32,751 bases of DNA, taken from the NCBI GenBank assembly GCA_031180805.1, contig JAPSLL010000046.1, forward strand, positions 1-32,751. Direction: 5' to 3'. Positions 1 through 5,510 of this stretch are shown here, one piece after another (positions within the stretch are counted from its first letter, which is position 1; every line of letters starts with the position of its first letter). A program made the position numbers and the translations under genes. The notes beneath the pieces were generated by a model. That model did no database searches. It was not told where the DNA came from and saw nothing but the letters and a program-made list of their open reading frames with translations. The stretch comes from Bacillus sp. (in: firmicutes). GTDB lineage: Bacteria; Bacillota; Bacilli; Bacillales; Bacillaceae.

Positions 1-578
1 TCTCCCTTTGAAATTTTATTCGCTTTAATGAGTTCAATAAGCTTTTTACTACGGAGAACATACGTAACAAATAGTGAGATAATGAAAAACAAGACAATAA
101 ATGAAACAAATGTCATAATGATCGCTTGTGTTGGAAAATAAAATGGCAGCGAGCTTTCAATAATCAATACATTTTCGGCAACTAACAAAATTCCTTTTGC
201 AAACACAATGCCTAGTAAAATTCCACCAATTGTAGCAAATAAACCGATTAGCATATTTTCTAAAAACACCATAAGGCGGATTTGTTTCATTGACATCCCT
301 TGAATCATCAATAGCCCGAATTCTCTTTTCCGTGATTGTAAAAACGAGCTCATCGAATAAAGAACGAAAAAGAAGGAAAAGACATAGATGATTCCTGCCG
401 AAATATTCATCCCTTGTGTCACATTTGAATTCATATCACTTCCGCTTAATCCCGGATGAAAGGCAAAAATCGAAAATGTAAAGAAAACCATAACGGTGAA
501 AAGGCTACTAAGAAAGTATGCAGCATACAACCTTTTATTTCGAATAACATTATTAAATGCGAACTGACGAAAGGTCAT
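1..578 (-). CDS. BceB/YxdM-type ABC transporter permease (partial, N-terminal 192 residues)
   Basis: This is the permease of a peptide-antibiotic sensing and detoxification ABC transporter in the cell membrane. Only the N-terminal part is visible; the gene runs off the left edge. The ATG at 576-578 has a GGGAGGGG-like ribosome binding site just upstream and overlaps the end of the ATPase gene by 26 bases. The visible protein begins MTFRQFAFNNVIRNKRLYAA, which resembles the YxdM/YtsD branch of the FtsX-like family as I recall it. A first membrane segment lies near residues 18-40, and three more lie near 58-78, 105-130 and 150-175. The segment SRKREFGLLMIQGMS (about 82-96) is the cytoplasmic coupling region typical of FtsX permeases. 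Full-length family members have about 620-660 residues with ten membrane helices and a large external domain that binds the peptide; that domain would lie outside the window. Confidence 0.9.
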   Translation of the reverse strand, partial: MTFRQFAFNNVIRNKRLYAAYFLSSLFTVMVFFTFSIFAFHPGLSGSDMNSNVTQGMNISAGIIYVFSFFFVLYSMSSFLQSRKREFGLLMIQGMSMKQIRLMVFLENMLIGLFATIGGILLGIVFAKGILLVAENVLIIESSLPFYFPTQAIIMTFVSFIVLFFIISLFVTYVLRSKKLIELIKANKISKG

Positions 579-1317
579 GTGCATCCCCTCCCAGTAAAGA
601 AAGTGTATCAATAATCTTTTGGAAAAAGGCTTGGCGATTATCCCCACGATGGATTTCCGAATAGAACTTTCCATCACGAATAAAGACAACCCTGTTACAA
701 TAGCTTGCAGCTTGCGCATCATGAGTTACAAGCATCATCGTTGTCCGTTCCTTTTTATTAATGTCCTCGAGCATTTCCATAACATCCTTTGAGGATTTTG
801 AATCAAGATTTCCTGTTGGTTCATCAGCTAATAATAGCTTTGGTCTATGAATCATCGCTCTTGCAACGGCTGCTCTTTGTGCTTGTCCCCCTGAAATTTC
901 GTAGGTACGCTTTTTCATAATTCCGCTAATACCAAGCTTTTCAGCAATTTCATTCGCTTTTTGCTTCATTTCCTTTACTTTTTTCCCATCTAATGTTAAC
1001 GGAAGAACGATATTTTCCTCGACGGTTAACGTATGGAGTAAATTAAAATCTTGGAACACAAAGCCTAGCTCACGCCGTCTAAATTTTGCTAATTCCTCTT
1101 TCTTTAATTTATGTGGGTTATTTCCGTTAATTAAAATTTGCCCTGTTGTTGGCTCATCAATTGTTGCGATCATATTGAGTAACGTCGTTTTCCCACTTCC
1201 TGATGGCCCCATTATCCCGACAAATTCACCTTCATCAATTGTTAAATCTATATCTGTTAACGCACGGTAGGCAATATTACCTTCATAAACTTTACTTACT
1301 TGTTTTACATTCAGCAT
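553..1317 (-). CDS. BceA-type ABC transporter ATP-binding protein
   Basis: This is the ATPase subunit of the peptide-detoxification transporter and drives the adjacent permease. It has 254 residues, normal for this MacB/LolD-like family. Walker A GPSGSGKTT is at 37-45, the Q-loop at about 89 (FQDFN), signature ISGGQAQR at 141-148, Walker B LLLADEPTGNLD at 161-172 and the switch His at 199. The ATG at 1315-1317 was chosen over an upstream TTG because an AAGGGAG ribosome binding site sits eight bases before it. The gene has its own likely promoter (TATACT at 1360-1365, minus strand) downstream of a BceR-type box at 1410-1423, so it can be induced separately from the two-component genes. BceA, PsdA and YxdL cannot be separated from sequence alone. 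Confidence 0.95.
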   Translation of the reverse strand: MLNVKQVSKVYEGNIAYRALTDIDLTIDEGEFVGIMGPSGSGKTTLLNMIATIDEPTTGQILINGNNPHKLKKEELAKFRRRELGFVFQDFNLLHTLTVEENIVLPLTLDGKKVKEMKQKANEIAEKLGISGIMKKRTYEISGGQAQRAAVARAMIHRPKLLLADEPTGNLDSKSSKDVMEMLEDINKKERTTMMLVTHDAQAASYCNRVVFIRDGKFYSEIHRGDNRQAFFQKIIDTLSLLGGDAHDLSSVRI

Positions 1318-1359: not shown

Positions 1360-1365
1360 AGTATA
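1360..1365 (-). promoter_or_regulatory. -10 element of the bceAB-like promoter
   Basis: Read on the minus strand, TATACT lies 43-48 bases upstream of the ATPase start. The -35 position at 17-bp spacing is only a T-run (TTTTTT), which suits a promoter that needs an activator. The BceR-type box ends 44 bases upstream of this hexamer. The assignment is by inspection; no transcription start is known. Confidence 0.6.
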
Positions 1366-1407
1366 TCCTCTATTTGATTAGTAAAAAATCGATTTTTCTT
1401 TCACTTT

Positions 1408-1425
1408 CCTTACACGGCTGTAAGG
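1408..1425. promoter_or_regulatory. BceR-type operator overlapping the kinase stop codon
   Basis: CCTTACA-CGGC-TGTAAGG is a perfect inverted repeat. Its core (1410-1423) matches TNACA-N4-TGTAA, the consensus known for BceR-like regulators. On the minus strand a second half-site-like TGAAAG follows after five bases (TGTAAG-N5-TGAAAG). The same arrangement occurs at the second box (3185-3211). It overlaps the last codons and TAA of the kinase gene and sits about 54 bp (centre to centre) from the TATACT hexamer before the ATPase gene. Confidence 0.8.
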
Positions 1426-2411
1426 TTTTGTGTAGAAGTAAAAATAATTCTAAATGTTGACCCCTCACCGACCTTTGACTCAAGTTCGATACGATGCCCA
1501 AGATGCTCTATAGCCTCTTTCGTCAAGTAGAGACCCATTCCCGTTGATTCTCTGAATTTCCGCCCATTTTCTCCCGTATAAAACGGGTCAAAGACACGAC
1601 GCTTATCTGTTTCAGGTATGCCTACTCCATAGTCTTTTACCTCTAAAATAGCTTCTCCAGCTTTTTCATAAATTGAAATGTTAATGGTCTTACCTTTTCC
1701 TTTCGAATACTTAACGGCATTATTAATAAGCTGTGAAAGCATAAAGAACAACCATTTCTCATCAGTCTCTACCGTAATCCCATCCTTTTCCTGCGAAAAA
1801 TTTGGATATACCTGATTTCTTATATAGAAGCGTTTATTTTCACGATTAACTTCACTTACAAGCTTTGTAAGATTAACGGGTTTAATATGAAAATCCTGTT
1901 CAATCGTCCGCAGTCTTGCCATATAAAGAATCGTATTTAACCCTGTTTTCATCCTGTCCGTTTCCTCGCGAATATTCGATGAATCCGGTTCATCTAAGTT
2001 TTGTGCAATTAACTCGATGACAGAGATGGGTGTTTTCATTTGGTGGACCCATTGATCCATAAACTTCAAATGCTCAGTTTGTCTTGACTCTAATCTTTTA
2101 ATTTGCTCCTGATAATGTTTGTATTGATCCTTTAAAAGATTATCAAGCGCCTCAGAAATAGGGGTTTGTTCTGTTTTTTGGAGAGATTGATCCAAGGATT
2201 CAAGTTCATTGCTGAGTCGTTTGTAAAAAAGTCGCCGGCTATAATAGTGATAAATTAAATATCCGCCAAGAAAAAAGAAACCGAGAAATACCGCATATAG
2301 TGCTGGTAATAGACGAGGGTAGCCATCAAGAAAATAGATTGATAAAATGACAAAAAATTGAATGATTTGAATAGCAATAAGTAGAGCATGCTCCTTTAAA
2401 AATAGCTTCAT
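1410..2411 (-). CDS. Intramembrane-sensing histidine kinase (BceS/YxdK family)
   Basis: This membrane sensor kinase is expected to be controlled by the neighbouring transporter rather than by direct ligand binding, as is known for the BceS family. It has 333 residues. Two membrane helices (about 9-28 and 34-56) are joined by only a few residues, so there is no external sensor domain. The phospho-acceptor is His123 in WVHQMKTPIS. The N-box is QLINNAVKYS (Asn230/231), the G1 box is VKDYGVGIP (Asp260) and the G2 box is STGMGLYL near 289-296. The ATG overlaps the stop of the response-regulator gene by four bases (ATGA), so translation is probably coupled. Its own 3' end carries a BceR-type operator. 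Confidence 0.93.
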   Translation of the reverse strand: MKLFLKEHALLIAIQIIQFFVILSIYFLDGYPRLLPALYAVFLGFFFLGGYLIYHYYSRRLFYKRLSNELESLDQSLQKTEQTPISEALDNLLKDQYKHYQEQIKRLESRQTEHLKFMDQWVHQMKTPISVIELIAQNLDEPDSSNIREETDRMKTGLNTILYMARLRTIEQDFHIKPVNLTKLVSEVNRENKRFYIRNQVYPNFSQEKDGITVETDEKWLFFMLSQLINNAVKYSKGKGKTINISIYEKAGEAILEVKDYGVGIPETDKRRVFDPFYTGENGRKFRESTGMGLYLTKEAIEHLGHRIELESKVGEGSTFRIIFTSTQNLTAV

Positions 2412-3115
2412 TGCTTCTCAGCCTTTGACCAGGAAATATTCAAGCGATAGCCTGCCCCTCTAACCGTTTCGACTGCCCCTTTAATCCCTACTGCTTCAAA
2501 TTTCTTTCGAACTCGGGTAATGTTAACATTCAAGGTGTTTTCATCAACATACATTTGGTCGTCCCATAATTTTTCAAGCAAATCCTCACGTCCCGCAACA
2601 CGTGGATATCGTTCAATTAAGCTTTCGATAATATCAGATTCCTTTTTTGTTAGTGTAACTGTTTCAGCATTAAAAGATAGCTCTAGCCTTTCGGGATATA
2701 GCTTTAAGCCTTCTGTTTCTAATACACGCTCCTCAACATGTGCAGCATATTCCCCGTAAGCACGACGAAGCTGACTGCGAATCTTTGCCATAACTATTTC
2801 GGGATGGAAGGGCTTAGTAATAAAATCGTCGCCGCCATTTTCAAGCGCCATTACTTGATCCATTTCACCGACACGTGCTGATATGAAAATAACAGGACAA
2901 ATTGATTCCTTACGAATTTGCCGACACCAATAATAGCCATCAAAGCTTGGTAAATTAATATCTAAAAGAACGAGATCAGGATTAAATGCTTGAAAGTCCT
3001 TCATCACATGTTCAAAATCAGTAACAATATTCGCCTCATATCCATATTTATTTATGTAAGATTGTAAATGCTCCGCAATTTTCGGATCATCCTCAATAAT
3101 TAATATCCTTTGCAT
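2408..3115 (-). CDS. OmpR-family response regulator (BceR/YxdJ type)
   Basis: This cytoplasmic DNA-binding partner of the adjacent kinase has 235 residues. The receiver domain has acidic residues Asp9/Asp10, phospho-acceptor Asp52 (LLDINLPSFDG), Ser79 and Lys101. A winged-helix trans_reg_C domain (about 135-230) ends in VETVRGAGYRL. The start is the ATG at 3113-3115, with AAAGGAG eight bases upstream; a longer in-frame TTG extension has no ribosome binding site and would put hydrophobic residues before the receiver domain. It is the first gene of the module. Two TNACA-N4-TGTAA boxes, the motif bound by BceR homologues, lie in the module, so autoregulation and control of the transporter genes are likely. 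Confidence 0.95.
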   Translation of the reverse strand: MQRILIIEDDPKIAEHLQSYINKYGYEANIVTDFEHVMKDFQAFNPDLVLLDINLPSFDGYYWCRQIRKESICPVIFISARVGEMDQVMALENGGDDFITKPFHPEIVMAKIRSQLRRAYGEYAAHVEERVLETEGLKLYPERLELSFNAETVTLTKKESDIIESLIERYPRVAGREDLLEKLWDDQMYVDENTLNVNITRVRKKFEAVGIKGAVETVRGAGYRLNISWSKAEKQ

Positions 3116-3184: not shown

Positions 3185-3211
3185 CTTACAAGATTGTAAG
3201 AAAAATGTAAG
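3185..3211. promoter_or_regulatory. BceR-type operator in the divergent intergenic region
   Basis: CTTACA-AGAT-TGTAAG is a perfect inverted repeat (core 3186-3199) matching TNACA-N4-TGTAA. A third half-site, TGTAAG at 3206-3211, follows five bases later on the plus strand. The same head-to-tail extension is seen at 1408-1425 reading toward the transporter genes, so the asymmetry here points to the plus-strand gene at 3282. The distance from the core to TATAAA at 3242-3247 is 42 bases, against 44 at the transporter promoter. It may also serve the minus-strand regulator gene, which has a CATAAT hexamer at 3141-3146. Confidence 0.8.
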
Positions 3212-3241
3212 ACTATTCAATTTCTTTTAACTAATGCCATT

Positions 3242-3247
3242 TATAAA
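3242..3247 (+). promoter_or_regulatory. -10 element for the 22-codon membrane-peptide gene
   Basis: TATAAA lies 35-40 bases upstream of the ATG at 3282. There is no good -35 hexamer at 16-18 bp spacing, again consistent with activator dependence. The placement relative to the BceR-type box matches that of the transporter promoter to within two bases. Confidence 0.5.
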
Positions 3248-3281
3248 ATGAAATAACAGGATTTGAAAAAGGAGATAAGCA

Positions 3282-3350
3282 ATGAAAAAAGTTATTTTTG
3301 AAATGCTCGCTATTGTTGTTATTTTAATTGGTGGCTATGCTGTTATTTAA
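3282..3350 (+). CDS. 22-residue single-pass membrane peptide, putative BceR regulon member
   Basis: This short gene encodes MKKVIFEMLA followed by IVVILIGGYAVI: two lysines, then an almost uninterrupted hydrophobic stretch long enough for one membrane helix. An ideal ribosome binding site (AAGGAG, seven bases before the ATG) precedes it. It diverges from the regulator-kinase-transporter module and shares the intergenic BceR-type operator, which faces it. I do not recognise the peptide. Small membrane proteins are known next to related systems (VraH with VraDE in Staphylococcus aureus), so an accessory or stress-output role is a fair inference. A type I toxin-like peptide is an alternative. 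Its short length makes the call uncertain, but the ribosome binding site plus operator geometry argue that it is expressed. Confidence 0.65.
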   Translation: MKKVIFEMLAIVVILIGGYAVI

Positions 3351-3504
3351 ATTTGCACAACTGGTAACCAAGACTTTTGCAGCTGTACTGTAGGAGTGTG
3401 GACGTTTTAAAAGGTAGTTTAAGTTCGTGGTTATCAAAAATTAGTGTAGTTAGAATACTTAAGTGAAAAGATAAATAAGAAGTATCCAATAAGGGCTGAA
3501 TATA

Positions 3505-3543
3505 AAGCAAGCGAAAAAAATAGTGCATTTTCTTCACTTGCTT
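3505..3543. repeat. 17-bp stem hairpin, 5-nt loop
   Basis: The arms AAGCAAGCGAAAAAAAT and ATTTTCTTCACTTGCTT flank AGTGC. Read on the minus strand all 17 positions pair, two as G-U; on the plus strand those two are mismatches. No strong U-run follows on the minus strand; on the plus strand the sequence continues TAGTATTTG, so weak termination of the 3282 transcript is possible. Confidence 0.55.
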
Positions 3544-3625
3544 TAGTATTTGATACCTCGTCCAATTTTCATTTTTCAGTCGTTTAGATACCTTACTTTC
3601 AATAATACTCTTCGAACTAGACATG

Positions 3626-3657: not shown

Positions 3658-5475
3658 TTAGACAGCCTCGTCATTATTTAAGCTCACATTAAATTGTTTC
3701 GAAGTACTATATAATGAATTGGATAACCCTTTTAATTGCAAACCAATTTGATGAGTGCTTTCCATCTGCTTTATTTGAATATTACTTGTTGAAAGCATTT
3801 GTTCTGTACTAGCAAGGGTTTCTTGTGAGATTGATGCAAAGCTTAATGTTTCTTCTTCTAGGTCCGGCAAAATCTGTTTTAGACTTTGAAGCTCTCCTTG
3901 CATTCCTTGAAGCTTTTTACTAACCGTATCAATTTCATTCATTAATTCATCAAAGGAAGCTTTAGAATCGTTTGCCGTTTCTAAGTAGCTTCTAATTTTC
4001 ATAAGCATATCGTCAAATTCATTTGTAGCTCGAATCGTTACATCTTCCATTTCAATAATTGATTTTGAGATATCTACAGTAGCAGACGAGGATTGTTCTG
4101 CAAGTTTACGGACCTCGTTAGCAACAACTGCAAATCCTTTTCCCGCTTCTCCTGCTCTTGCTGCCTCGATTGTTGCATTCAGCGCTAATAACTTCGTCTG
4201 ATCAGCGACACCTTTAATTAAACCTACAAGATTTGTTATGGAAGATGAATGCGCCTTTACTTGTTGAATAGTTGACGTCATGTGCTCAAACTCTCTCTCA
4301 AAACTGTGGATTGTATTAATTAAATATGTATTGTTCTTTTCTCCACGCTCTGCGGATATATTCATATCTTCTGCGCTTTGAAATACTGTATCCATCCCCG
4401 AAATTAACAATTGAATTTTTTGTTTCATTGCCCGGAAGCCCTGTACACTATTATCCGAGCTACTTGCTGTTTGTTCAGCACCGTGCTTTACGACATTAAT
4501 AGCTTCAATTAACTGACGGCTATAAGACAGTGCATCTTCAGAAGAATGACTCAATTTTTCTCCGGTTGTTTCTAGCTCTGTTGTTGTTTCATTTATGTCA
4601 TTTATAACGTTTCTCATCTGTTCAATCATCATATTAAAGCTTACTTTTAGAGATTGTAACTCTGGAATCGTAGTTTTAATTAAAGCTTTTTCATTTAAAT
4701 TCCCCTCTCGTACCTTTGTCATAACATTTCTCAGGTCATTAAGAGGTTTTGTTAGACTACGAACAAACAAGATTATAAGAAGAGTTGAAATGATTATGCT
4801 AACAGCCATTACAACGATCATAAATTTTGCCATTTCATTCACTGGTCCCAAATAAGATGCTGTCGGAACAACCAATAGGGATTTGCCATCAATTTCCGGC
4901 ACTTTTAAAACAGAAATTGTATAGTCTTCACCATTAATTTTTTGCTGAAAGACATCTTTATTTTCACTTTGTATCTTTTTTATAAAAGAGTCTGTAAAAG
5001 ATATGTTTGCTTTATTACTTACTTTAAATGGTTTGATTTCTTCATCTGTATAATAGAATATATGTGCTTTAATTCCATCTGTTTCTAACTGGCGTTGCTG
5101 ATCACGAATACTAATCTCTAATTGCTGCATAAAATAGGAGTCATCACTTACATATAAAAACTTTAAGTTTTTAGCAACATACGCCATAACCTCTGATTCA
5201 CGACTTATACGATTTTCAATCGTCTCAATTGTCGTATCCTTTGCCTTTAAATAGGAACTAATTCCTACAGTGGTAATGGAAACGACTAATAAAAAAATAA
5301 ATAAAAACAATAATCGGCTTTGCAAGTTAACGTTTGCAAATACTTTATCCAAAAGTCGATTAGGCGCTGATAGATTTTCCCTTTCAGTTTTCTTTGTCTT
5401 TCCAGGCTTTTTCAATTTATTCTTTACTTTATGTATGAGTCTATTTTTTAAGTGGTACGCCCATTTCTGTTCCAA
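3658..5475 (-). CDS. Methyl-accepting chemotaxis protein
   Basis: This membrane chemoreceptor signals to CheA/CheW. It has about 605 residues. A basic cytoplasmic leader of some 50 residues precedes a first membrane helix near 55-76. An external sensor domain of about 140 residues (probably single-Cache-like) is followed by a second helix near 217-238, a HAMP domain and a long coiled-coil signalling domain. The conserved hairpin tip contains [20 protein letters not shown]. The preferred start is TTG at 5473-5475, because GGAGGG lies seven bases before it. The ATG five codons upstream has no ribosome binding site and is itself part of that GGAGGG. The ligand cannot be read from the sequence. 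A TGTTATAAT extended -10 at 5511-5519 suggests expression by the housekeeping sigma factor. Confidence 0.93.
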
Positions 5476-5510
5476 AACTGAGCCCTCCATATCTCGAGTA
5501 ATTTTGACTC

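What the first reader, a model, noticed from the sequence alone, without database searches (positions are those of the whole stretch)
3185..3350. A 22-residue membrane peptide gene placed under a BceR-type operator, divergent from a Bce module
The gene at 3282-3350 has an ideal ribosome binding site and encodes a basic start plus one membrane helix. It lies downstream of a TNACA-N4-TGTAA box whose third half-site and distance to the -10 (42 bases) copy the arrangement at the transporter promoter (44 bases). Small helper proteins are known beside some related transporters (VraH with VraDE), but this peptide is unfamiliar to me. It may be a new output or accessory subunit of peptide-antibiotic detoxification modules, or a stress toxin. 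The geometry is seen directly; the role is inference.
Basis: partly seen in the sequence, partly recalled or inferred. Interest (0 to 1): 0.72.

Follow-up and report, generated by a model that had tools for sequence, protein, structure and literature searches.

The report
Tiny membrane peptide in yxeA's slot
Next to a bacterial antibiotic-defence gene cluster, a switch of the cluster's own type stands before a gene for a 22-residue membrane peptide, exactly where related bacteria keep a larger accessory gene called yxeA, so the peptide is probably what remains of that gene and may still tune the cluster.

Summary
The assembly has two full TTACA-N4-TGTAAG palindromes, both in this module: before bceA and before the 22-aa frame. 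Operator, ribosome site and frame are conserved in one relative (regulator 97% identical; 5 silent, 3 replacement changes). The other 78 family genomes have no credible match.

Of 80 named bceR loci, 8 have an exact divergent operator, and all 8 also carry a divergent yxeA (DUF1093/TIGR01655); 1 of the other 72 does. Operator-to-start is 101-110 bp there and 96 bp here. A YxeA-family protein, YsaD, alters Bce-type signalling in Lactococcus (PMC7438565). I read the peptide as a BceR-controlled, anchor-only miniature or relic of YxeA. Sequence support for that descent is weak: no TIGR01655 hit and no C-terminal remnant. Function is undecided: sister species have lost the slot, while this pair keeps it intact.

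The parts
3186..3199 (+). BceR-type operator TTACA-N4-TGTAA
3206..3211 (+). third half-site TGTAAG, 11 bp after the second
3244..3249 (+). -10 TAAAAT, 44 bases from the box (overlapping TATAAA 3242-3247 at 42)
3266..3276 (+). ribosome binding site AAAAAGGAGAT
3282..3350 (+). 22-aa membrane peptide frame, in the slot of yxeA
3498..3551 (+). hairpin between the converging transcripts, possible terminator
   Evidence: -16.1 kcal/mol, z -2.6
2408..3115 (-). bceR-type response regulator
1410..2411 (-). bceS-type intramembrane-sensing kinase
1398..1423 (-). operator of the transporter promoter: box 1410-1423 and third half-site TGAAAG 1398-1403
1360..1365 (-). -10 TATACT of the transporter promoter, 44 bases from its box
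553..1317 (-). bceA-type ATPase
1..584 (-). bceB-type permease, N-terminal part only (contig end); nearest solved chains PsdB, then BceB

Best explanation
The 22-codon frame is the BceR-controlled gene of the slot that holds yxeA (DUF1093/TIGR01655) in other Bacillaceae, reduced here to the membrane anchor and still used. Proposed working: a peptide antibiotic engages the transporter, the kinase phosphorylates the regulator, the regulator binds the three half-sites and switches on bceAB and, divergently, the peptide. The peptide inserts as one helix with its basic end inside, beside permease and kinase, and tunes signal relay, as the YxeA-family protein YsaD does in Lactococcus. Shown: operator, promoter geometry, frame, conservation in one relative, yxeA in this slot elsewhere. 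Inferred: regulator binding, expression, translation, descent from YxeA, function.
For: Of 80 named bceR loci, 8 of 8 with an exact divergent operator carry a divergent yxeA, against 1 of 72 without; that one (L141) has the operator with two mismatches. Operator-to-start 101-110 bp there, 96 bp here; operator to bceR 53-88 bp there, 70 bp here. In G202 the same divergent layout holds a full yxeA. In the regulator tree the window pair falls in a 20-row group with three yxeA-slot rows, support 93/83, not strong. The peptide aligns without gaps to YxeA starts, at least five of which share MKK and GG at 17-18; on a profile against other membrane starts 2 of 119 background starts reach the window peptide and 0 of 119 the G010 one. 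Frame, ribosome site, operator and stop are kept in G010; dS 0.43, dN 0.06; so few replacements without a stop in 3-5% of neutral simulations (3-6% if stop-free runs only are counted). Deleting ysaD changes module signalling (PMC7438565, abstract and passages).
Against: No TIGR01655 or Pfam hit to the peptide. No YxeA remnant behind it, pieces searched apart. DNA identity to yxeA starts is no better than background: 29-33 of 66, with 5 of 141 background starts at least as good as the best. An unrelated long protein matches 12 of 22 residues, so anchors converge. Without the first three residues 3 of 119 background starts reach the window peptide. In its own leave-one-out test only 4 of 30 YxeA starts score lower than the peptide. 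Only 2 of 80 family genomes have it. Deletion of ysaD left resistance nearly unchanged.
Confidence: 0.4

Rival explanations
1. A dead relic: yxeA was lost, and promoter, ribosome site and the first 22 codons have not yet decayed; the operator may be kept, if at all, for other uses such as bceR autoregulation.
For: The slot decays often: G019 keeps the operator but has no -10 and no peptide; G016, L128, L129 and L134 show damaged boxes, read by eye; in L207 the divergent yxeA is out of frame with its apparent start. Own genome has no PF06486 match.
Against: Operator (26 of 26 bases), ribosome site, start, length and stop are all kept in G010 while the sequence behind the frame has large indels; silent changes exceed replacements.
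Confidence: 0.28
2. An independent short membrane peptide, not derived from YxeA, that moved into the slot: a new feedback subunit, or a secreted signal peptide.
For: Other short membrane frames unlike YxeA lie under promoters of the same geometry: 38 aa in G009, its 30-aa relative directly upstream of a bceR paralogue in G015, 40-46 aa in other genomes. Weak sequence link to YxeA.
Against: Same slot, distance and orientation as yxeA. The only family-model hits are NprX pheromone models over the first 15 residues, 14.0 and 14.8 bits against a cut-off of 33.
Confidence: 0.25
3. A chance frame behind an operator that serves bceR only.
For: The operator stays in G019 without any peptide.
Against: 7 of 5000 shuffles give such a frame; it is kept in G010; third half-site and -10 point to the peptide, and on the bceR side of the G010 box no good -10 lies at 40-47 bases.
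Confidence: 0.05

Closest known systems
YxeA / YsaD family (TIGR01655, PF06486 DUF1093)
   Same: slot, operator, distance to start, basic start plus one N-terminal membrane helix
   Different: no extracytoplasmic domain: 22 aa instead of about 110-130; no family-model hit
VraH of Staphylococcus aureus VraDEH
   Same: small one-helix protein tied to a Bce-type transporter (PMC5786555, passages)
   Different: per that review VraH has a positively charged C-terminus with a conserved motif; this peptide ends at the helix and is divergent from bceR
BceR-type regulated promoters of bceAB
   Same: TNACA-N4-TGTAA consensus (as quoted in PMC9020739, passage), third half-site, -10 at 44
   Different: the gene controlled is a short peptide. 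That a secondary site helps BceR binding is recalled from the B. subtilis literature, not read here

Membership tests
BceR-type regulated promoter | TNACA-N4-TGTAA operator | tested here: met
BceR-type regulated promoter | spacing to -10 as at the transporter promoter | tested here: met
   44 bases at both
BceR-type regulated promoter | binding and activation by the regulator | not testable with these tools
   needs gel shift or reporter
Bce-type module | intramembrane kinase and BceAB-type transporter | tested here: met
   kinase to solved BceS over 2-325 of 333, E 7e-38; permease N-terminus to PsdB E 3e-30 and BceB E 2e-11
YxeA (TIGR01655 / PF06486) | family-model match | tested here: not met
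   no hit in Pfam at 0.001 or NCBIfam at 10; a 22-aa query cannot score high
YxeA (TIGR01655 / PF06486) | DUF1093 domain after the anchor | tested here: not met
   stop at codon 23, no remnant behind
YxeA (TIGR01655 / PF06486) | anchor resembles YxeA anchors more than other membrane starts | tested here: inconclusive
   2 of 119 and 0 of 119; DNA-level test negative
VraH-type subunit | charged conserved C-terminal motif and binding to the transporter ATPase | tested here: not met
   sequence ends GGYAVI; binding not testable; feature from PMC5786555 passages
NprX-type pheromone | family model match above cut-off | tested here: not met
   14.0 and 14.8 bits against 33

The most novel reading that the evidence does not exclude
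BceR-type regulons of Bacillaceae repeatedly carry very short membrane peptides as outputs: 22 aa here and in G010, a 30-38 aa family in G015 and G009 (in G015 directly upstream of a bceR paralogue), 40-42 aa in G122, G160 and G290, 46 aa in G153. They would be a largely overlooked class of accessory or feedback subunits of peptide-antibiotic detoxification modules, some of them stripped-down YxeA anchors.
Probability: 0.3. Interest if true: 0.65.

Novelty: new variant of a known kind. Interest (0 to 1): 0.45.

Why it matters
YxeA-family proteins accompany Bce-type antibiotic sensors and can alter their signalling, but how is unknown. If one species pair has kept only the membrane anchor under the same switch, the anchor may be the part that contacts the sensor complex, which a start-codon mutant or an anchor-only construct could test. 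The promoter geometry seen here (three half-sites, -10 at 44) also gives a specific way to list BceR regulon members, short genes included.

Tried and rejected
A -10 distance of 42 as a near copy of 44: replaced by TAAAAT at exactly 44. A second short frame at 3377-3466 looked conserved in G010 in an ungapped count, but it has no shared start or ribosome site and the gapped alignment of the same call puts an 8-base gap near its end; not claimed. YxeA C-terminal remnants downstream: none. DNA-level homology to yxeA starts: no support. The first background test (3 of 127 for the window, 1 of 127 for G010) held YxeA proteins in its background; one search removed them, but its background still contains starts from loci fetched by the peptide query (L051, L055), which counts against the peptide. 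Weak peptide hits lie in or at the start of long unrelated frames. No plasmid match. Structure prediction was not run: a lone 22-residue helix would say little.

Full report
Setting. The window is one whole contig (G000:C3). The genus is almost certainly Metabacillus: over the columns kept, the regulators of five same-genus genomes are identical to those of M. fastidiosus, M. litoralis, M. crassostreae, M. niabensis and M. halosaccharovorans. On the minus strand lie a bceB-type permease cut by the contig end, bceA, bceS and bceR. The kinase matches solved BceS; the permease start matches PsdB (E 3e-30) better than BceB (E 2e-11), so the module may be closer to the lantibiotic type Psd than to BceAB itself. 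A chemoreceptor gene (3658-5490) converges on the peptide transcript, with a hairpin between.

Observation. Operator, third half-site, ribosome site and 22-codon frame are there. TTACA-N4-TGTAAG is at two sites in the assembly, both in this module; the looser TNACA form is at background. With the third half-site the motif is in 5 of 80 family genomes (control 1 of 80) and in 24 of 397 order genomes, 33 sites (control 0 of 397). Both promoters of the window have a -10 at 44 bases.

What such promoters drive. Of 34 loci read (three of the 33 order sites came without a locus), I count by eye 14 before bceA, 2 before yxeA (L058, L069), and others before membrane genes that look like PAP2 phosphatase, VanZ and DUF418; five kinds of short membrane frame also occur, in seven loci. 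Scanning every locus then on hand for box, third half-site and -10 at 43-46 gave 126 distinct promoters: 91 before bceA-like ATPases, 9 before yxeA, 13 before frames of at most 60 aa, 11 others, 2 without a call. Of the 13, five are false or doubtful: L069 is really yxeA, L207 is a yxeA out of frame with its apparent start, and L074, L152 and L187 are frames of 16-21 aa. That leaves the two 22-aa frames, L028, L046, L063, L065, L077 and L084. The loci had been gathered by regulator, motif, yxeA and peptide searches, so these are not frequencies. Class names other than bceA and yxeA are recalled patterns, not searched.

The yxeA slot. Eight have the exact operator within 450 bp on the divergent side. 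A YxeA profile finds a divergent yxeA in nine of the 80, among them all eight. In L203 the gene lies about 1 kb off with its own operator. The ninth, L141, has the operator with two mismatches. Seven loci hold less than 5 kb upstream of bceR, the shortest 335 bases, so a few genes could be missed. Operator-to-start is 101-110 bp (window 96), operator-to-bceR 53-88 bp (window 70). G202 has the same layout with a full yxeA.

Is the peptide a YxeA anchor? It aligns without gaps to YxeA starts. On a profile contrasted with other membrane starts, 2 of 119 background starts reach the window peptide and 0 of 119 the G010 peptide; without the first three residues, 3 and 0. Against this stand: no family-model hit, no DNA-level support, no remnant behind the stop and a 12-of-22 match to an unrelated long protein. 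The own genome has no PF06486 match; 5 of 21 genus genomes have one, 4 of them over the cut-off. The claim of descent rests mainly on position.

Is it used? G000 and G010 share operator, ribosome site, start, length and stop. The frame has 5 silent and 3 replacement changes (dS 0.43, dN 0.06; neighbouring genes dS 0.12-0.19); neutral simulations give so few replacements without a stop in 3-5% of runs. That is suggestive, from one species pair. Two of 80 family genomes have the peptide. G019 keeps the operator at the same place without -10 or peptide; G016, L128, L129 and L134 show damaged boxes by eye. In the regulator tree the window pair groups with three yxeA-slot rows, G019 and others at 93/83. 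So the slot is often lost, and this pair keeps it: a retained miniature or a recent relic.

Mechanism. In Lactococcus, deleting ysaD (YxeA family) hardly changed resistance but altered promoter response to bacitracin, down or up depending on the transporter (PMC7438565; abstract and passages). In Enterococcus faecium a DUF1093 protein is in the LiaR regulon (PMC10269926, passages). An anchor-only version could act through membrane contacts with permease or kinase. This is inference.

Literature. Searches (terms on BceR, BceAB, YxeA, YxdJ, DUF1093, VraH, small membrane protein, microprotein) listed no title that reports a short peptide in this position; I judged listings and the passages of seven papers. 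Most subscription papers are not held. PMC11502775 passages describe a 9-gene BceR regulon in Streptococcus agalactiae.

Noticed in passing
L028 (G015:C87:263171-263260) and L046 (G009:C10:34721-34834): A 30-aa frame directly upstream of a bceR paralogue and a 38-aa frame elsewhere, 47% alike (E 0.004), each under a BceR-type promoter with -10 at 44.
   Followed up: partly
L063, L065, L084 (G160, G290, G122): Short membrane frames of 40-42 aa under BceR-type promoters, away from any Bce module; the 42-aa one is in 2 of 10 genus genomes.
   Followed up: partly
window 3377-3466: A second short frame behind the peptide, partly alike in G010 but without a shared start or ribosome site.
   Followed up: partly
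L207 (Oceanobacillus oncorhynchi), divergent side of bceR: The yxeA in the slot is out of frame with its apparent start in this record.
   Followed up: no
L057, L073, L075, L078: BceR-type promoters before genes that look like VanZ, PAP2-type phosphatase and DUF418 membrane proteins (names recalled, not searched).
   Followed up: no
L014 (G019), between bceR and a LysE-like gene: An orphan operator with exact third half-site but no -10 at the usual distance.
   Followed up: no
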